Origin: Tubulanus polymorphus
Taxonomy: Eukaryota > Nemertea > Palaeonemertea > Tubulaniformes > Tubulanidae
Assembly: GCF_964204645.1 (NCBI RefSeq)
Contig: NC_134035.1
Span: 6,946,501-7,010,500 of the forward strand
Direction of reading: 5' to 3'
DNA length: 64,000 nt
Position 1 is the stretch's first letter. Each line of letters starts with the position of its first letter. Of the stretch, positions 8,728 to 39,055 are shown in pieces. The notes beneath the pieces are model-generated. The model saw only the letters and a program-made list of their open reading frames with translations, had not been told where the DNA came from and did no database searches. The position numbers were made by a program, and so were the translations under genes.

Positions 8728-11700
8728 TTACAAGAGGTTCTTGAATAACATAGCATAGTCCATTTTCTGACGCCTTTGTGCCATCGCTAGTCGATCACGA
8801 ACAATGTTGTGTGACGTAGTGAGGCGGTCAGAGAGGTCCATGCCATACTTAGTCCTTGGTTGGTGGTCCTCGGGCAAGCCTACGCTGATGTCGATTGGTA
8901 GTGACATTTCCTCGGCGTACATCAAGTAGAACGGCGTTTCAAGAGTGGAGTGCTGGACGCTTGAACGAAATGCCATCAAACACGCTGGTAGTTCCTCGTC
9001 CCAGTTTGTTCCACACTCATTGACGGCTGTAGTCAGCATGGCCTTCAGGGACTTATTGAAATTTTCCACCTGCCCATTGCCCATAGGATGGTAGGCAGTG
9101 GTTCTGGTCTTTTCAATAGCCAAGATCCTACACATCTCCATGAAAACTTTCGACTCGAAGTTCGTGCCTTTGTCCGAGTGGATGGATTCAGGGCAGCCGT
9201 AACGGGTGACCCACTCGTTCACAAGGGCACGTGCCACCACGGAGGCCTTTTCCGTGCGAATTGGCCATGCTTCGGGCCACTTAGTGAATGCATCTTGAGC
9301 CACTAGAATGTAGACATTGCCGCGGCGGGTTCTCGGTAATGGGCCCACGATGTCTATATGTACACGCTGGAAGCGTCGCCCTACCGGTGTAGACATCATT
9401 GGGGCTTTTGGTAGTTTGGACGGGGACTTGCACTCTTGGCAAGTTTTGCAGCCCCGAACAAAATCCCTGACCCTAGCTGAGAGGCCTAATACCCAGAATC
9501 TTTCCCTAATTTTGCACTCTGTCTTTTTGGTACCGAGATGTTTCCCGGCAAATCCCTGATGTATGACTCCTATGGTTCCATCAGTCAGTGAAATGGGTAG
9601 TACCACTCAGTGTCTCGTTGAGGTAGCCCCCGGAAGTGGTTTAAGCGCAAGAATGCCATCTAAAAGCTCTAGACGCTCAACCAGACTATAGAGGCTCCTC
9701 GCTGTTCTACCACACCGTTGTAGCCGTTTCTTGTCCTTGACCCCATCTCCGGCCAAGAACTCCCTAATTTCTGATATTTCGGGGTCATTTACTTGCGCCT
9801 CGATTATTTTGTTCCTGGACAAGCCAGTGGAGTGCGCTGTCAAATCGCCCTGATGTTTTGCAGTCACCTGGTATATAGATGGACCAGTGTCACCACAAGT
9901 TGGGCAGTCCCCATGTTTCCTCTGTCTCTTAGGGATGCGAGACAGGGCGTCTGCGTTCAAATGTTTGCTTCCAGCTCGATGTTCGATCACGAAATCATAT
10001 TCCGACAGGCGTTCAAGCCACCGAGCCACTTGGCCCTCAGGGTTTTTGAAGGTTTGTAGCCAGTTGAGTGCTGCGTGGTCTGTGCGAACTTTGAATTTCC
10101 TGCCTAGTAAATGGTGGCGGAAGTGATCAATCATGTCAACCAAGGCCAACATTTCGCGCCTGGTGGCACAATAGTTCTCCTCTCCACCTTTCAGCGTGCG
10201 GCTACTGTACTCGATCACTCTCTCAGAACCATCGTGTTGTAGTTGTGACAGCACCCCTCCGATAGCCCAGTTAGAGGCGTCACAGTCCAAAATGAACTCT
10301 CCAGCACCCTCCGAGAAATCTGGGAATGCCAGGATAGGGGAGCTGGTCAGCTTTTCTTTCAGTCCGTCAAACGCTAGTTGTTGCTTGAATGTCCAGACAA
10401 ATGGTTCATTTTTCCTCGTAAGGCGGTGTAGCGGGGCTGTCAAGTCGGCGAAATCCTTGATGAATTGCGAGTAATATGTCACAAGACCAAGGAAACTACG
10501 CAGTTCGGTAACTGACGTTGGGGTCGGCCAATCCCTGACTCTATCGCATTTGGCACCGTCGGTTTCGACACCGGCCTCGCTTACTACATGCCCCAAAAAC
10601 TTGAGGCACCGCTGGAAAAGCGAGCACTTCCTCGGTTTTAGCTTGAGACCGGCTTTCTGAAAGCAACGAAATACCTCTTGTAATCGCGTCAGATGGGTTG
10701 GTAGATCATGACTAAACACCACTACATCATCCAGGTAGATAAGGCATGTTTTCCATGCAACATCATCCACTACCATTGCCATCAGTCTGCTGAATGACGC
10801 CGGGGCATTACAGACTCCAAACGGCATGACATTCCACTCAAATAGATGGTTTTCAGTCGTGAATGCGGTCTTATGTTTGTCTGATTCCTTTATTGGGACC
10901 TGCCAGTATCCGCTAGTTAAATCGAGGGACGAGAACCAGGTTGCGCCCGATAAAGCCTCTAGGGTACTGTCTATTCGACCTAATGGGTGAGCGTCTTTGA
11001 CTGTTGCGTCATTGAGTCGGCGGTAATCGCAGCATAGACGCAGGGAACCATCGGCCTTTTTCGCTAGAACTATTGGGCTTGACCACGGGCTGGTGGATGG
11101 CCGGATCAAGTTGTGTTTTAAAAGCTCCTTGGTCGTACCCTCAACAAAAGCTCTCCTACCGGGGGGTAGCCGACGGGGATGTTGTTTTATCGGTGGGTGG
11201 TCACCGGTGTCAATCTCGAATTCAAGCGAATCTGTTCGACCAATGTCAAAGTCTCCCATCGAGAATACTGACTTTAGCTCCCGTATGATGTCAACAAGCT
11301 GTGTTTTCATGTCAGTGGGGATTTCAAGCTGGTCGATTTTCAATTCTCTCAAGAGGTCCTTGAATTCAGTATTGTCACCACCCTGCAGATGGATTTTTGG
11401 AGTTGACGGGTTTTGAGCATGGTCGTCGACAGTCATGATGTCAACTGACTGTAGGGGGCAGAATAGACCAATAGTCTGGCCCCTGTCGACTCTACAAGCC
11501 TCATCCGAGAAGTTAGCCAGCCGAACCGGTATCTGGTTTGCCTCCGGTACCACCAGTGTTTTCCCAGTGCAAAAATTATTCCGTCCACAGCTGCTGATCA
11601 TCCCTGAGGTCGAATTATTATGAGCATAACTCCGTTTCATGTATCCATTTACCACCACCTCGGATCCAGCTGGAATGATTTGGCTCTTACTGATGAACAC

Positions 11701-12593
11701 CCTGCAAGCGCTCGCGCGTTTGGGGCTCTGGCGGACAGGCACCTCGCTGAGGCTTCCGAAGCGGAGCACTTTGTTACGGTAATCTATGTTGCAGCCATAT
11801 TTCTCGAAGAAATCACTTCCAAGCAAGCAGTCTTGTGCCAAATCCTCACTGACGATCATGGGGACATGAAATTCTTCAGTTCCAACTCTCAGACATACAT
11901 CAGCTAATCCACGTAACTCCATTGGCTGACCGGTAGCCGTTGTCACGATTCCTTCGATTGGCCTCAGTGCAGCGGCTTCACCAGTCGGGCTGCTAGAGTC
12001 CCATACCAAACCTCTAATGATTGTGCAGGAGGCACCAGTGTCCAGGAGTACCACCGCTTTCGAATGGTCATTTACTACGGCATCACAGAAAAGGCCCGAG
12101 GCGTGGAGCCTCACTGTTCCGATGTTTGTAACTAAACTCGTCTGGGCTGGTTCTGTCCCTGTTGTTTGAACCTTGGTGTCGCGCAACTTGTGACAAGTGT
12201 TTTCCGTAGCCGGACTGGGAGCCTCACTGTTCTCCGAAGGGTCACGTCGATTTTCTTCTATACTTTGGGTATGTTGTGGTGGTCTAACAGTGATGGTTCT
12301 AGTAGGATGCGGACCATCAGTAGGTGTATCTCCACTAGAATCACATGCCGGGCCAGCAACCACATATCCATCTTGAGGTGTCGTTTGAATATGGTTTGAT
12401 GGTCTCGATATCATTTGAATATGGTTTGATGGTCTCACGGTGGTGGGGCTAGTATGATGGTAACCATCAATAGGTGCATCTCTACTTGCATCGCACGTTA
12501 GACCATTTGCCGTATTCATCCGATTTTTCCTACGTCTTGCGGGGGGTATATACAGCGGTACAGGGGGGACTATTTCCTGATGGGGTTTCCACT
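8728..12593 (-). pseudogene. pol: gypsy pol: protease-RT-RNase H-integrase, one in-frame TGA
   Basis: The pol frame is open from the frameshift heptamer at 12594-12600. Counting from the Met at 12519, the protease active site LLDTGAS is near residue 160. Reverse transcriptase spans roughly 430-620 with YLDD and MPFGVCNAPASF. RNase H follows at about 745-860 (LDCDAS, EMLAL, RTDHAAL). A single TGA at 9607-9609 interrupts the frame just before the integrase HHCC zinc domain. The same frame then continues to 8728 through the D,D-35-E core (HIDIVGP, HSDKGTNF, GQVENFN). Everything except the TGA and the shortened C-terminus looks functional. The TGA could be a recent nonsense mutation. Confidence 0.9.
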
Positions 12594-13686
12594 GCCCCCC
12601 TGAAAACCCCGCTTCTCGTTTCCCTGGTTTCCCTTAGGTAGGTGGCAGTTACTTGAATAGTGACCACTCCCCCCGCAATTATAGCATTTAACTTGTGGGC
12701 ACAAGTTTTTGGGGTGGTCTGCATCCCTGCAACGCCAACATTTGTCATCGGCGGGTGGTCGACGATTGCCATTACCAGAGACAACTGCTTCCAAAACTTA
12801 CTCGAGTCATCAGCGTTCCCATCATCGACTTCAATTCATCGAGTTGTTTGGTTATGGCTGAGCTAGTCGAGTTGAGCTGGGTCTGGTTAACGGATACTTT
12901 TTGTTTATGAGTCGTGCCCTCAGTCAACCGTCTCGCTGTTTCCAGAGTCCGTGCTTGAGCGACTGCTGCAGCCAACGAACTTGGCTGGGCCGCATACATT
13001 GACTGCTTCGCTGAGACGGGTAGGCTATTACCTTTAAGGAATTGGTCTTTGGCCAATTCATCCTGCAGCTCGAAGGCAATGCCAGGGTATGCGTTCCTTG
13101 CCAGCTCTGCTAACTCGTCGGCATAGCGTTCCACAGATTCAGTTGTCTTTTGGTCCCTCCCTTTCAACAACATCTTAAAGTCATCCACAGTCTTTGTTTG
13201 TTGGAAACGGGATGATAGCCGCCGACAGAAATCATCATACGACAGGCTCGAGTCGAGACGTAGGTTCGAGACAGCCTGGTATGCCTCATGGTCAAGTCGC
13301 ATCATCAGGTGTGATTTACGCTGTTCGCCCCCGTTGATGCGAGAACTAATCTGGGCCAGGTCAGCGAATGCGTCAAACCTTTCGAGCCAAACGCGGAAAT
13401 TGTGTCCCATGGTATAGGGCTTGGGTGCCGGAATATTGTGCATTTTCGGGGTGGGTGCATCTCTCGTCACGACCCTCTCCATCACTTCAGTCAGTCGCTG
13501 GAGGATGGAATCCTCAGATGTTTTCAAATTTTCGGCTTTTGTCTTCGTTGGACGGCCACGTTTTGGTTTTAACGAGAGGTTACCCTCCCCACTAACCAGG
13601 AGGTCATGATGTGCAGCTCCGGCCGTTGGTGACATCGGCCTAGATAAGGCCAAGGGCTCACACACATCCTTCTCAACATCCGACAT
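12570..13686 (-). pseudogene. gag: gypsy gag with two CCHC knuckles, one frameshift
   Basis: The first 304-codon frame (13686 to 12772) is a typical retrotransposon Gag. It has a basic N-terminal patch with an AT-hook-like GRPTK, then the conserved W-x2-F region and the helix-rich capsid domain. The nucleocapsid lies in the next frame (12794 to 12570), with two zinc knuckles (CWRCRDADHPKNLC and CYNCGGSGHYSSNC). A 1-base frameshift close to 12,790 joins the two. The nucleocapsid frame stops at TAG just after the candidate -1 slip site into pol. The ATG at 13686 starts close behind the primer-binding site and is the natural start. Confidence 0.85.
12594..12600 (-). other. Candidate -1 ribosomal frameshift heptamer between gag and pol
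   Basis: In the nucleocapsid reading frame the sequence is G GGG GGC, which fits the X-XXY-YYZ rule. Slipping one base back places the ribosome exactly in the pol frame, which is open from here. The gag stop codon is 21 bases downstream. A following structure was not assessed. Confidence 0.5.
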
Positions 13687-13908
13687 AATTACTATTCTTT
13701 TATATAAATGACACAGAAAATACAGGACCGCAAATAAATGTAGGGGAAACAGGCACTTAAAAATACTAAATATGTACTAGGAATTACGAAGTAGGTAAAA
13801 AAATACGTTAAGTACATACAAAAAGTAACAGTAATTTACACAGACTAAACGGAGAAAAACGTGTTCACCGCTTCAACTCAATTTCAACTGGTTTTTTCAC
13901 AATCAAAT

Positions 13909-33880: not shown

Positions 33881-35433
33881 AAGTTTTCCCTTTCATTCAA
33901 AAACTGAATTTATATTGGCTTTAGAAAAGTTATTGTTCAGCCTGGTTCTAAATCCTCATTCGACAAACGACCACAACGATGCACAGTTCCAATACGCTCA
34001 TTTATTTACAATCAGAATACCGTATTGCTTGAACGACTTATCGAGAGAGTGAGTGTGGTTGGCTTCAAAGGTACAAAAATACAAAATTAGACAAGAACGT
34101 TAAAAAGGCCAAACTTTAGTTTGTAATTCAGCAAATCTAAATTGATATTAATACTTACACTAACTATGCCGTACAAGGGGTATATAGAACCAGACTGACG
34201 CCTAGCCAAGAATTCACGGTTTAAATACAGTGCTGGTCATAATCGTGAAAAATGTTGTAAGTTCGCGTAACAAATAACAATTGCAGGATTTAATACGCTT
34301 CGAGCACAATACAATCACACTACTGAGCGTCGAATACATAATACAAATAGCTAAAGAAGTACATTAAATCATCTGATTGGGTATTCCGCGAGAGTACAGC
34401 ATCTTCGCATTTCTGGTAATTTCCATCAAGAAAATTCCTCACTCGTATTGTTGTCAAGAAATAAAATCCGGGCTGGCGACGAATCGAGCAGAGACAATAA
34501 TCTACCGATCCTCTCTCAGTTAGTGTAAACCGGGAACTCCGCAGTTTCTATGAACTACTTGCGGATGTATCAGTGCGCGAGCACCTGTCAGGATAATGAT
34601 GGGGATAACACTTCATTGCCGGGTAAAACCGATATAGACAATTCACTGACAGGTAGGTGTTCATGTGCCTTAAAACTTTCCATAATTCATCAAAATTTTT
34701 GGAACCTTGGCACGACATGCTATGGGCAAATGACGCGTTACAGACACATTTATCGGATTATCAGTTCTATTAGGATTTAACATTATGGGACTATATCCGT
34801 GGCAGTAGAGATACTACGGCAAGATTTTTACCAGCGACGACCCCTATATTGTCTTCGACCATTGAAAGAACGTTGATACATAGAACTACTTCATACAAGC
34901 AATAATTGAGTTTCTGCCTCTGGTAACAATTCAAAACCTCGGGAAACAATAAGTTACCTAAAATCTGACAATTGCATGTTTTAACATCACAACATCATTG
35001 TTTCCAAACATTTTATTTGACACAAGGGGGTAAAAGTCAACCAAGCCAACAATTGCAATGCCCCAATTTTGTCCTTTTTTTAAGCCTGTACACTCTGCAA
35101 TAACTATCATATTCAGTGTCCTTCTCTTTTGCAATAATATAAGGAATCTTGTAATATAAGCCATGATGATTTCTCCAAATATGATACAATTTTAACCATT
35201 CAAGGAAATGACAACATCCATAACTTTTTTATAAGTTGTACCTTTGTATTAGTAATCAACTTTTTCAACTACAGTACCGACATTAGGAGTATAACAATCA
35301 ATGACACCAACAACACACAATATGTCATTGCAGTGAACCGTTAAGGTCAAAGGTAATTATGCAACATCAACTGTGTCATTTTAGAAGCTACGGTTATTAT
35401 GGAATGGTCAACAATCACACGTGCTACGTGTCA
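33881..35433. other. Non-coding, nothing recognised
   Basis: No gene, tandem repeat or foldback that I can support in this stretch. Confidence 0.35.
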
Positions 35434-35776
35434 CTAAACCTAAGACCCATAAACCTAAGACCCGACTCTAAATCATTATTTGTGTACTTTAGACTATTCA
35501 AAATGGTTCTAATATATAGATATTAGTTAAAATGATCCATCGATGGCCTATTTAAATTTGGTTCATTTATCAGAGACGAGATATTTGGTGGTCTTAGGTT
35601 TATGGGTCTTAGGTTTAGTATATTATATATAGGTGTCACTAAACCTAAGACCCATAAACATAAGACCTGGCTCTAATTCGTTATTTGTTTACTTTGGACG
35701 AGATATTTGGGGGTCTTAGGTTTATGGTTCTTAGGTTTAGTATATCATATATAGGTGTCACTAAACCTAAGACCCC
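35434..35776. repeat. Head-to-tail MITE array with 29-bp inverted ends
   Basis: Copy 1 (35434-35618) has perfect 29-bp inverted ends that start CTAAACCTAAGACCCATAAA. Copy 2 (35639-35740) has the same ends with single changes and a shortened interior. A third copy begins at 35761 and is cut after 16 bases, right before the virus-like element. Copies are joined by TATATYATATATAGGTGTCA. No coding capacity. Confidence 0.8.
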
Positions 35777-35789
35777 CTAAACATCTATT

Positions 35790-35859
35790 CAATATTTATA
35801 GTTGGTTCCACCCCCCGCTGCCCTTACCCCCGTCACTCACTACGACCCTCGAGCAGAGG
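35790..35859. repeat. Left copy of the 70-bp direct repeat flanking the virus-like element
   Basis: Matches 38985-39055 except for one inserted base in a C run. It is followed inward by an imperfect GC palindrome (about 35,893-35,925, CTGCGGCGCG...CCCCGCTGAT) that could form a hairpin. Confidence 0.85.
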
Positions 35860-35970
35860 AGGTAGTCGTATTAATTTCTTTTTCCCCTTATCATCTGCGG
35901 CGCGTAGCGCGGAGCCCCGCTGATATCAAAAACTACTAAGACAAACACTAATATTTATAACAGAGATCGA

Positions 35971-36027
35971 CCGACCCGACCGTATTATCGGAATCCGGGC
36001 TAAAAAGGAGCGTCGATGGTTTTTTAT
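35971..36027. repeat. Left inverted repeat of the virus-like element
   Basis: Its reverse complement (ATAAAAAACCATCGACGCTC and onward) aligns with 38805-38860 along its length, with a few mismatches and one gap of about 4 bases. The position just outside the Rep stop suggests a decayed terminal repeat. Confidence 0.65.
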
Positions 36028-36105
36028 TAATGAATCATGTTATGTGAGGCAACTAGTTCGTTATCGGCTAGCGCGTTTTGTTCTTCGTACATGCCTACTA
36101 GCTCG

Positions 36106-37420
36106 TTATCCGCTAGCTCGTTCGTTTGTTCTTCGTACATGCTGGCGTAAAAATCTCGGGACAGTTTGGCGTTCTTGTTTGAAATAGCGTTCTCTATGGG
36201 CTTCGTCGTCGAGTAGTTCCATGATGTCCATCGCTCCGTTGTCGTTGATTTCTTTGACTAGTTCTACGAGTATCTCCTCGCAGACCGCCGGCGAAATGTC
36301 GTACTTCGTAGATCCCATGTCGATACGTCCTTTAAACCGTACCGCTAGAAATCTTCTTTCCGCGGCTTCTAGAGCTATGGTGGCGGCGAATTTTTCCATG
36401 GGATCTCTTTCGTTGGTAGTTATCAGAGTCATACACGGCGGGTTGCTCTGTTTCGTCGAATGCACTTTAGCTTCCCACGACGATTGGTACATGGCGAGTA
36501 TCATCGATAGTAGCGCCGAATTGTGCCAGAACGAGTCGGACGCGTCGTCTACTTTGAATACTCTGTGACCGTTCGACATCTCGCACGCTCCTACCCCTTC
36601 GCTATCGTTAGGCATTTGCGAGCTTATCAGGTCGGGAAATAATATTCTCGCCAGTAACGATTTGCCGGCTCCGGCGTCTCCGTAAAAAATTATATGCGGC
36701 GCTCTAGTTATCACGCTCATTCGTGCTTCTATTACCGCGTTCACTAGCACTAGTAATAATTCGTGGTGACCGAGTAGGCGTCCGTCCCACGTCGCTTCGG
36801 TTACCAGTCCCAATATTTGTTTTATCAATATCACCCCTCCTTTCGGGCTCAATTTGACCGTTTCCCGTTCCCGTTTTTTCTTCAGCAGTTGCGCGCCTTT
36901 ACGAACGCGCGGTATTACGCTCAACGGCCAGTTTTTGTAGGCGCGTCTTATTTTCAATTCTTGGACGTTATAGCCGAATTCTTTTACGATTCGCATCGCC
37001 CATTCCGACGATCCGGGTCGGTGATCGTATTCCGCGTACAGTTCTTCTACTCTTGGCGAAGAAATCTTCGTTGACTTTCGCGTTTTGGGTTTCCAGATGT
37101 TGCCGCAATTCGAGCGGTATGGTTTCGGCGTGTTTATACATATATTGTATGTACGCGCCTAATTTCTCGGTCGGTTTCACGTACTCGTTCGCCAACTCGA
37201 TACCCTTCTCCGTCAGTAGTTGTCGTATGGCCGATTCCGATTGTTTGTTGGCCACACCGTTGTCTCCTTTTTGCGTTATTATTACTCCGTGGGCGAAACC
37301 GTCTCCCGGTTCTCGCGGGCCGATGTGTATGCGTACGTCGCTTCGTCCGATACGCGCTTCGAGTCGTACCGATTCACGGTTGCTCGTCGTGAACGACCAG
37401 TTTCTGGCTCTTGTCGACAT
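36106..37420 (-). pseudogene. rep: Rep-like protein: HUH endonuclease plus SF3 helicase, frameshifted
   Basis: The N-terminal frame (37420-36968) carries a CRESS-type motif I (WSFTTSN, residues 8-14), a motif-II-like FAHGVII with a single clear His, and a YMYK motif III (Tyr93, Lys96) as the nicking site. The C-terminal frame (36996-36106) has a superfamily 3 helicase: Walker A GDAGAGKS (106-113), Walker B FKVDD (about 147-151) and motif C LITTN (about 191-196). A 1-base frameshift at about 37,035-37,065 separates the two. In ssDNA viruses such proteins nick the origin and unwind the genome in the nucleus. Motif II looks weak. Assignment to parvovirus NS or CRESS Rep is open. Confidence 0.75.
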
Positions 37421-37635
37421 GTTCGATTTTCTCTGTAGTCGAATAATCTTCTAGCTATTTCGGTGATGCGCCTTTCGCGAAGTACCCGATTCTCTAGAGC
37501 GCCGTGTTTTATAACCCAGGTATTAGTCACCTCGTCTCTTATCGCTACGAAATCTGCCGTCCTTCCCATGGTATAACCGCGCCACTTGCGTCCGAATAGA
37601 TAACCGGATACGATGAATAGGAAAACGACGATCAT
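37282..37635 (-). CDS. Small ORF with N-terminal membrane segment, between capsid and Rep
   Basis: 117 codons starting with ATG at 37635, nine bases after the capsid stop. Residues 2-14 form a hydrophobic helix followed by basic residues (GRKWRG), a signal-anchor arrangement. The remainder is Arg/Glu-rich. The last third overlaps the start of Rep in another frame. It is unbroken although both neighbours are frameshifted. No family recognised. It may be a viral accessory protein or a chance frame over Rep. Confidence 0.45.
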   Translation of the reverse strand: MIVVFLFIVSGYLFGRKWRGYTMGRTADFVAIRDEVTNTWVIKHGALENRVLRERRITEIARRLFDYRENRTCRQEPETGRSRRATVNRYDSKRVSDEATYAYTSARENRETVSPTE

Positions 37636-37643
37636 AGCTCTAT

Positions 37644-38740
37644 TTATATTCTGTTCTTGTGTAATATCTTATACTCGACCTCGGCCGGTATGTGTATTTC
37701 GGTGGCCGCTACGGCTAGGTTTTTACGAATGGAGTGGTTGTAAATGCACAGCTGAGTTATCAGGGCGCAACTGTTCCACAGGCTGTAGAAGTGTTCGTCG
37801 TACCAATTATCTTTCGACCCTATGTCGACCGTTCTTATAGTCTTCGTCGGATCTGTAGTACTCGTTATTTCGCTACGCAGTACTCCTACCGGTATGTTCA
37901 GGGTTACGCATCCCAGTCCCATGTCGTGGTTCCTGTAACTGCCCTTTTGCGTCAAATGGTTGGCGTCGTGATAATTGCTGCCTGCTACCGTTCGTTTCAG
38001 GTCCCAATCTACCGCCGTCCGTAGCCAGGCTATGGGATTTTGCGGCGCGTTGCTATTGTTCGCCCCCCCCCGTCCGATATAGCCCCTTCGGTCGACAACG
38101 GGAACAGGGTTATTTTCGCGTCCAATACTTTGAATTGATCGTACAAGTTAAAGAACGCCGGATGGTTATTGGGGAATACTTTCCATCCCGGAGTTTCGGT
38201 TAGATCGAAGCAGAAGCTAGTCATTTGCGACACCCTAACCTCCGCCTTATCTCCGTAACCTCCCGAACTCGGATCGCTGGACCAGCCCGTGAACGTTAGA
38301 TACCCTCGCTTAATCAGCGACGTCTGGTGATAGTTTTCCGGTTTTAACGTCGTGTGCGCCGCCATGTCTTGCGCGTTTCCGTAGTCTTCTCCACCGCCCG
38401 CGCTTCTTCTTGCCCGTTTCATCGGGGTTTGTCCGTCCGTGGTTTCGTCCGCCATCGCCGGGAATAGCGCTCTCTTGGTTTTGAATACAGCTGATGTTAA
38501 TCGCGCACCGAAACCCGTTACACCGTTCGCACTTTCCAAGAATTTCTGATCCGCCGAGTTGTATCGCAGGTACGGCGCCCATGAACCGTACTTTTCTTGA
38601 AGTTCCCCGTATTCCTTATCGTGTTGCCTGCAAACTTCGTCTATTCCTTCTCCTCGCTTATTAGAGATATCGTTGAACGGTCCGCAATGAGGTAACCCGG
38701 GTAACGTGTATCCGTGTCTTTTACGTTTCAACGCGGGCAT
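37644..38740 (-). pseudogene. Capsid-like protein with N-terminal phospholipase A2 domain, frameshifted
   Basis: An ATG at 38740 opens the frame. A basic KRKR stretch is followed by the parvovirus-type PLA2 signature: a calcium-loop-like PHCGPFN (residues 17-23), the catalytic VCRQHDKEYG with His40-Asp41, and ADQKFL. A second basic patch (MKRARR) precedes the capsid portion with YDQFKVLDAKITLFP. The frame is lost at a nine-base C run near 38,062-38,071 and continues in another frame at 37,955-37,644. The total length (about 350-360 codons) is short for a parvovirus VP1 and nearer to small single-jelly-roll capsids. In parvoviruses the PLA2 acts during endosomal escape. Confidence 0.75.
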
Positions 38741-38804
38741 TTACCTATATCCGCGGAACTCTCCGTGTCTAATACCAAAATGTGTAGCGCGGCCTTCCAC
38801 GCCG

Positions 38805-38860
38805 ATAAAAAACCATCAACCCTCATTTTTACCCGGGACTCGGATAATTGGGTCGGTCAG
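38805..38860. repeat. Right inverted repeat of the virus-like element
   Basis: Partner of 35971-36027, starting ATAAAAAACCATC and passing through ATTTTTACCCGG to GGGTCGGTC. It lies just upstream of the capsid ATG. Confidence 0.65.
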
Positions 38861-38917
38861 GCCAAATGATGAATAAATAAATGAATTATGAATAAATACT
38901 AAGATGCAATCGGTCCC

Positions 38918-39055
38918 TGGAGGCGAAGCCGACCTTGCCAATGTTCCCCGGAGGCGAAGCCGACCTTGCCAATATTTATTTTGCCAATATTTATAGTTGG
39001 TTCCACCCCCCTGCTGCCCTTACCCCCGTCACTCACTACGACCCTCGAGCAGAGG
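38918..39055. repeat. Short tandem repeat and right copy of the 70-bp direct repeat
   Basis: GGAGGCGAAGCCGACCTTGC followed by CAAT occurs twice (from 38,919 and from 38,950). After a doubled TTGCCAATATTTAT comes the 71-bp copy of the flanking direct repeat (38985-39055). Confidence 0.8.

What the first reader, a model, noticed from the sequence alone, without database searches (positions are those of the whole stretch)
36106..38740. Virus-like element with PLA2 capsid gene upstream of an HUH-SF3 Rep on the same strand
Seen: PLA2 signature (GPFN, CRQHD), then a small membrane ORF, then a Rep with a CRESS-like motif I (FTTSN), YMYK and SF3 helicase motifs, all on the minus strand within inverted repeats. 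Known: parvoviruses encode NS first and VP second (or ambisense), and PLA2 is a parvovirus capsid trait, while motif I of this type is a CRESS-virus trait. Inference: a chimeric ssDNA virus lineage with inverted gene order, fixed in an animal genome.
Basis: partly seen in the sequence, partly recalled or inferred. Interest (0 to 1): 0.88.

Follow-up and report, generated by a model that had tools for sequence, protein, structure and literature searches.

The report
Circular PLA2-capsid DNA virus in genome
A eukaryotic, probably animal, genome carries copies of an apparently undescribed small DNA virus whose coat protein bears a parvovirus-type lipid-cutting enzyme but whose replication protein matches no known family, including a run of about forty near-identical head-to-tail copies with mostly unbroken genes.

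Summary
The minus strand of 35,790-39,055 is a viral element: a PLA2 capsid (Pfam PF08398, 3.5e-14), a small overlapping ORF, then a Rep with HUH-like and SF3 motifs. Capsid and Rep each carry one frame break. The decisive evidence lies outside the window: the same three genes in the same order, 47-63% identical by piece and under purifying selection, form a head-to-tail array of about 40 units of 3,406 bp on contig C14, 22 of 36 compared units identical. So the order capsid - small ORF - Rep belongs to a lineage. Head-to-tail units and a 71-bp terminal redundancy around the window copy point to a circular genome, on which 'inverted gene order' loses most of its meaning. The 52-nt inverted repeat is real but absent from the array unit. 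Rep passes no Pfam or NCBIfam cut-off and has no significant PHROG or PDB match; the capsid resembles parvoviruses only in PLA2. The array closes on both ends of one 45.4-kb chromosomal segment, as in virus-host amplicons. Best reading: a new, probably family-level lineage of circular ssDNA virus. No database rich in eukaryotic viruses could be searched, so novelty is provisional; the host was not identified.

The parts
35790..39055 (-). whole inserted element, about 1.02 unit lengths of a circular genome of about 3,195 bp
   Evidence: 71-bp direct repeat at both ends, only two matches in the 267.8-Mb genome; viral noncoding motif just inside the right copy
38985..39055 (.). right copy of the 71-bp direct repeat (terminal redundancy; rival: target-site duplication)
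   Evidence: one 1-nt indel and no substitution between the copies
35790..35859 (.). left copy of the direct repeat
38741..38984 (-). noncoding region upstream of the capsid gene, with GGCAAGGTCGGCTTCGCCTCC repeats shared with the array unit
   Evidence: match to the array noncoding region, E 3.6e-8
38805..38856 (.). right arm of the 52-nt inverted repeat, 83% complementary
   Evidence: 43 of 52 against a shuffle maximum of 31; no counterpart in the array unit
38030..38740 (-). capsid gene, first piece: PLA2 domain (residues 10-89) and start of the capsid part
   Evidence: PF08398 3.5e-14; 58% identical to the array capsid
37644..38063 (-). capsid gene, second piece in another frame
   Evidence: 47% identical to array capsid residues 216-360; no Pfam match
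37282..37635 (-). small ORF (117 aa) with hydrophobic N-terminus, overlapping the Rep start; TATAAA at 37648 just upstream
   Evidence: 50% identical to the array's 102-aa ORF
37052..37420 (-). Rep, N-terminal HUH-like part: NWSFTTSN, AHGVIIT, YMYK
   Evidence: 63% identical to array Rep 1-123; coordinates; motif names recalled; no Pfam match above cut-off
36106..37053 (-). Rep, SF3 helicase part: Walker A 36681-36658, Walker B 36555-36544, motif C 36423-36412
   Evidence: 60% identical to array Rep 124-406; motifs conserved; coordinates
35976..36027 (.). left arm of the inverted repeat; an AATAAA after Rep starts at 36028 on the minus strand
35860..36105 (-). noncoding region downstream of Rep
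   Evidence: from the Rep stop to the direct repeat

Best explanation
The element is an integrated copy of a small circular single-stranded DNA virus of about 3.2-3.4 kb that carries, all on one strand, a capsid protein with an N-terminal phospholipase A2, a small ORF with a hydrophobic start, and a Rep with an HUH-like nickase domain and an SF3 helicase. Inferred mechanism: Rep nicks and unwinds a hairpin-bearing noncoding region between Rep and capsid, the circle is copied by rolling circle into head-to-tail concatemers, and PLA2 opens the endosome during entry as in parvoviruses. Linear products opened in the noncoding region join host breaks by end joining with little homology. One such event left the single, slightly redundant, now broken copy in the window; a very recent one left about 40 near-identical units on C14, joined to both ends of a 45.4-kb chromosomal segment. 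Shown: gene content and order in two diverged copies, purifying selection, the head-to-tail array, the redundancy and the junctions. Inferred: ssDNA and circle, nicking, PLA2 activity, entry route.
For: PLA2. Same order in the array unit: capsid 360 aa, small ORF 102 aa, Rep 467 aa. Protein identity between window and array 47-63% by piece. pN/pS 0.36-0.48 in the capsid pieces, the Rep pieces and the small ORF before Rep starts; 0.58 over the whole small ORF. Head-to-tail units: 35 of 36 compared units exactly 3,406 bp, 22 of 36 identical; capsid frame 360 aa in 37 of 38 anchored units, small ORF and Rep full length in 38 of 38. Direct repeat with no third match in the genome, and a short motif repeated across its inner edge. 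All four ends of the two insertions lie in the noncoding region. Two strong hairpins there in the array unit, z -5.4 and -5.0. C2 edges free of virus.
Against: No profile assigns Rep to HUH or SF3 families above a cut-off; the first His of the HUH motif is Y/F in both copies. Two AlphaFold jobs on window pieces gave no usable model (mean pLDDT 39 and 37). No exogenous circular genome was seen. The 71 bp has no match in the array noncoding region, so a long target duplication is not excluded. Parvovirus DNA can also form head-to-tail circles (recalled).
Confidence: 0.7

Rival explanations
1. A highly derived parvovirus with a linear genome and terminal hairpins; the window inverted repeat is what is left of its telomeres, and the array came from circularised intermediates as in AAV.
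For: PLA2 matches capsid VP1 chains; the 52-nt inverted repeat is real; the array noncoding region has two strong palindromes.
Against: No Parvo_NS1 match. No VP1 match in the capsid beyond the PLA2 part. Order capsid before Rep. The inverted repeat has no counterpart in the array unit. The window copy ends in a direct repeat; terminal folds there are no better than shuffles.
Confidence: 0.2
2. The 71-bp direct repeat is a host target-site duplication, so the window copy says nothing about circularity.
For: It matches only at this site, lies at both ends, and has no match in the array unit.
Against: A duplication of 70 bp is unusual (recalled). GC 0.57 against 0.37 and 0.30 in the flanks and 0.49 in the element. 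A short motif (GCCAATATTTAT) is repeated across its inner edge.
Confidence: 0.25
3. The C14 array is an assembly artefact, for example reads of an active infection joined to a repetitive host stretch.
For: Units nearly identical; the left flank is a dispersed repeat with 98-99% copies on C1, C6 and C7; C14 is a separate contig whose start recurs at 181.49 kb.
Against: Both flanks match C2 best, at a spacing of 45,440 bp, which equals the non-array part of C14 (45,439 bp). The two array stretches (one site tested) and the two segment copies (8 sites in 18.5 kb) differ, as real copies would. Even then the virus itself would be real.
Confidence: 0.2

Closest known systems
Parvoviridae
   Same: N-terminal PLA2 of family PF08398 in the capsid protein; Rep with SF3 motifs; small genome
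   Different: No NS1 profile match; capsid of about 360 aa without sequence match beyond PLA2; capsid gene before Rep; probably circular
Cressdnaviricota (CRESS viruses)
   Same: HUH-like plus SF3 motifs in Rep, motif I of FTTxN type, probably circular genome of 3.2-3.4 kb with hairpins in one noncoding region
   Different: No Viral_Rep profile match; PLA2 is not mentioned for CRESS capsids in the passages read of PMC11945456; no canonical nonanucleotide shown
RepE1 cressviruses of sea anemones (Buck preprint, PMC11071296)
   Same: Cress-type virus endogenised at high copy, beside retrotransposons, in an invertebrate (passages read)
   Different: Their Rep resembles papillomavirus E1 and one has a Hepecap capsid; here no E1 profile match and a PLA2 capsid
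Circular Cah-bearing parvoviruses and Parvo3071 (PMC11071296, section 13 read)
   Same: Blur parvovirus and CRESS traits; apparently circular genomes or an extra CressRep
   Different: They keep a parvovirus NS1; genomes over 5 kb in the Cah group
HPV heterocateny and hybrid ecDNA (PMC13386876, passages read)
   Same: Viral concatemer linked to both outer ends of one host segment, repeated
   Different: There in tumours with papillomavirus; here in a genome assembly with a PLA2 ssDNA-type virus; circle or chromosome not settled

Membership tests
Parvoviridae | NS1 profile (Pfam Parvo_NS1) | tested here: not met
   Not listed for window pieces or array Rep at E up to 10; HMMER filters limit sensitivity and no known NS1 was run as positive control
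Parvoviridae | PLA2 in the N-terminus of VP1 | tested here: met
   PF08398 3.5e-14 (window) and 2.4e-11 (array)
Parvoviridae | parvovirus-type capsid beyond PLA2 | tested here: not met
   By sequence only: best stretches in VP1 chains end at profile position 117 or earlier; fold not tested
Parvoviridae | linear genome with terminal hairpins | tested here: inconclusive
   Inverted repeat in the window copy only; array head-to-tail without it
Parvoviridae | NS gene before VP gene, or ambisense | tested here: not met
   Capsid - small ORF - Rep on one strand in both copies
Cressdnaviricota | Rep motifs I-III plus Walker A, B and motif C | tested here: inconclusive
   Motif I, motif III and SF3 motifs conserved; motif II has only one His; assignment from recalled motifs
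Cressdnaviricota | CRESS Rep or RNA_helicase profile match | tested here: not met
   PF00910 0.059, 14.3 bits against a cut-off of 21.5, window piece only; Viral_Rep not listed
Cressdnaviricota | circular genome | tested here: inconclusive
   Head-to-tail array and terminal redundancy agree with a circle; no episome seen
RepE1 cressviruses | papillomavirus E1-like helicase | tested here: not met
   No E1 profile listed at E up to 10
Bidnaviridae | protein-primed PolB and segmented linear genome | tested here: not met
   No further long frame that could hold a polymerase in either copy; definition from PMC4061559 passages

The most novel reading that the evidence does not exclude
A family-level lineage of circular ssDNA viruses that pairs a parvovirus-type PLA2 with an unrelated small capsid and an orphan HUH-SF3 Rep, and that persists in its animal host as a young virus-host amplicon of about 40 genomes with mostly unbroken frames per unit, a natural counterpart outside tumours of papillomavirus heterocateny.
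Probability: 0.35. Interest if true: 0.92.

Novelty: new variant of a known kind. Interest (0 to 1): 0.8.

Why it matters
PLA2 in a capsid is treated as a parvovirus entry device; here it sits on a different small capsid next to an orphan Rep, so the entry module would have moved between ssDNA virus lineages. The array would give a rare view of how circular virus genomes concatenate and enter a host genome, with unbroken frames that can be dated and whose junctions can be read. It also makes testable whether virus-host amplicons of the papillomavirus type arise outside tumours.

Tried and rejected
Relatives: the 5.8-billion-protein set gave none for the helicase piece (2,091 candidates, E up to 1), the first capsid piece (181, E up to 0.01) or the Rep alignment (7,998 scored of more, E up to 10). 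IMG/VR gave none with protein queries or PLA2 patterns. These IMG/VR blanks are weak. Of the 70, 12 were read, 10 of them with GPARTGKTN; 8 of these 12 were scanned in Pfam: 6 are phage terminases, 2 matched nothing. Of the 80 listed, 10 were scanned and all 10 are UvrD-type helicases. The single E1-pattern hit is a DnaB-type helicase. The other stretches were not examined; the collection as held seems poor in small eukaryotic DNA viruses.

Structures: both models are too poor to search with, so no fold search was run. PDB searches with Rep pieces gave no significant match. PHROGs were run on window pieces only (best 0.012).

Terminal hairpins in the window copy: not better than shuffles. A link between the window inverted repeat and the array noncoding region: none. 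A simple insertion of the array at one chromosomal site: rejected, since its two flanks lie 45.4 kb apart and face outward on C2. A plain circle read 1.3 times by the assembler: less likely, since a variant at C14:55538 is absent at the matching place of the second array (one site). Host species: not settled; a STING family search found nothing, and nothing in the controls either, and the COX1 search did not complete. A whole-genome search with the full array capsid did not complete.

Full report
What was claimed and what is there. All of it is in the sequence. The capsid frame 38740-38030 matches Pfam PF08398 over residues 10-89 with E 3.5e-14 and capsid VP1 chains in the PDB. The Rep lies in two overlapping frames, 37450-36968 with NWSFTTSN and YMYK and 37158-36106 with Walker A, Walker B and motif C. 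No Pfam or NCBIfam entry reaches its cut-off for Rep, and no PHROG or PDB match is significant; the lowest E-value is the generic AAA_10 for the array Rep (0.0019, 17.7 bits against 27.5), and the weak matches that cover most of the helicase domain are to SF3-like P4 primase (0.035) and VapE (0.056). The 52-nt inverted repeat is far beyond chance.

State of the window copy. Capsid and Rep each change frame once, the capsid between 38075 and 38063 in a G-rich tract and Rep near 37053 between its two domains. No base that would mend them was sought. The small ORF (37635-37282) is open, starts just after a TATAAA at 37648, and overlaps the Rep start. The two copies of the 71-bp direct repeat that bound the element differ by one inserted base and no substitution, which suggests a young insertion.

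The relatives in the same genome. A whole-genome search with the helicase piece returned 50 matches (a capped list): the window locus, 46 on contig C14, one on C8 and two pieces on C2. With the first capsid piece, 47 of 50 matches lie on C14, the others being the window, C5 and C10. On C14 a 3,406-bp unit repeats head to tail from about 38.39 kb to 174.43 kb, 39.9 units, and again from about 219.9 kb to the contig end, of which only 1,962 and 251 bases were read. In the unit the order is capsid (360 aa), small ORF (102 aa), Rep (467 aa), then about 697 noncoding bases. Of 36 units compared, 35 are exactly 3,406 bp and 22 are identical, with 13 variable sites among the 35; three units in one gap between anchors were not compared. 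Of 38 anchored units, 37 keep a 360-aa capsid frame and one has 307 aa; all 38 keep the small ORF and Rep; two further units missed by the anchor keep capsid and Rep.

Window copy against array unit. Identity by piece is 58% and 47% (capsid), 50% (small ORF), 63% and 60% (Rep). pN/pS is 0.36-0.48 in the capsid and Rep pieces and in the small ORF before Rep starts; over the whole small ORF, which overlaps Rep, it is 0.58. Synonymous sites are near saturation in the capsid and Rep pieces, so the two copies descend from virus lineages that diverged long before either was inserted and whose genes were under selection. This speaks against a local rearrangement as the source of the gene order.

Circular rather than linear. 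Three facts bear on topology. First, the array is seamless head to tail, as expected from rolling-circle concatemers or recombination of circles; rolling-hairpin replication of linear parvoviruses gives head-to-head and tail-to-tail forms (recalled). Second, the 71-bp direct repeat matches only at the two ends of the window element in 267.8 Mb; beside the right copy lies a motif that the array noncoding region also has, a short motif is repeated across its inner edge, and its GC is virus-like. A copy slightly longer than one turn of a circle explains this; a 70-bp target duplication is the rival. Third, all four ends of the two insertions lie in the noncoding region between Rep stop and capsid start: 246 and 316 nt after the Rep stop in the window, about 227 and 429 nt in the array, near the strong array hairpin at 249-312 nt. 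Two breaks are few, so a preferred break at the origin is a suggestion only. The 52-nt inverted repeat of the window copy has no counterpart in the array unit and therefore does not define the lineage.

The array and its host segment. The 981 bp left of the array match C2:17666847-17667827 at 100%, and the 1,000 bp right of it match C2:17711287-17712286 (1,795 bits against 1,804 for itself); both flanks also have copies elsewhere (left 98-99% on C1, C6 and C7; right about 80-84% in part on many contigs), so C2 was chosen by identity and by spacing. The C2 places enclose 45,440 bp and the non-array part of C14 between its two arrays is 45,439 bp. Only the ends of that stretch were compared with C2, not its interior. 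About 1.3-1.4 kb past each end was read on C2: host DNA without a match to the unit. The viral array thus joins the two outer ends of one chromosomal segment, and this repeats at least once more on C14. Junctions show two to three shared bases (read by eye). The two segment copies differ at 8 sites in 18.5 kb, all between 13.7 and 15.2 kb, and a variant of the first array is missing at the matching place of the second, so these look like separate copies. Whether the amplicon is a circle, a chromosomal tandem or an assembly product cannot be told from contigs.

Literature. The Buck preprint (PMC11071296; passages and section 13 read) reports RepE1 cressviruses endogenised at high copy in sea anemones, parvoviruses that seem circular and a parvovirus with an extra CressRep, but in what was read no PLA2 capsid next to a sole orphan Rep. 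A review of ssDNA capsids (PMC11945456; passages) gives PLA2 for parvoviruses. A survey of parvovirus sequences (PMC5013282; passages) lists one cnidarian species. The Nematostella virome paper (PMC7077227; term search only) holds none of the terms parvovir-, CRESS, circovir-, ssDNA or densovir-, and removed genome-mapping reads. The HPV ecDNA review (PMC13386876; passages) describes the amplicon pattern that C14 resembles. That nothing closer is in print rests on ten searches of an open-access library and is weak.

Verdict. The chimeric gene content and a lineage-wide order are real; the linear, inverted-order reading is probably wrong because the genome was most likely circular. The array of units and its virus-host junctions are the stronger finding. 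Main limits: no database rich in eukaryotic viruses could be searched (controls), no fold was obtained, the host was not identified, and no reads were at hand.

Noticed in passing
G000:C14:38391-174430 and about 219880-241462: Head-to-tail array of about 40 plus at least 6 viral units of 3,406 bp, nearly identical where compared, in a contig whose non-array part equals a 45.4-kb segment of C2.
   Followed up: partly
G000:C8:565659-566030 (L038:1057-1419): Isolated fragment of a related Rep (residues 246-366, 66% identical to the array Rep).
   Followed up: partly
G000:C2:9510872-9512172, C5:16677909-16678214, C10:4774990-4775238: Further partial copies: Rep pieces with stops on C2, a capsid piece with four stops on C5, a weak capsid match on C10; probably independent, older insertions.
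   Followed up: no
G000:C14:177581-178303 and 181491-182213: Inverted pair of a 723-bp stretch, 99.4% identical, in the AT-rich part beside the array; origin unknown.
   Followed up: no
window 8728-13776 (-): Gypsy-type retrotransposon with long open frames (protease, reverse transcriptase, integrase by eye).
   Followed up: no
window 35425-35784: Inverted and direct repeats of a TAAACCTAAGACCC motif just outside the left end of the element.
   Followed up: no
Viral-contig collection: Control patterns for parvovirus, CRESS and papillomavirus helicases returned phage-type terminases, UvrD and DnaB helicases where examined; the collection as held seems poor in small eukaryotic DNA viruses.
   Followed up: partly
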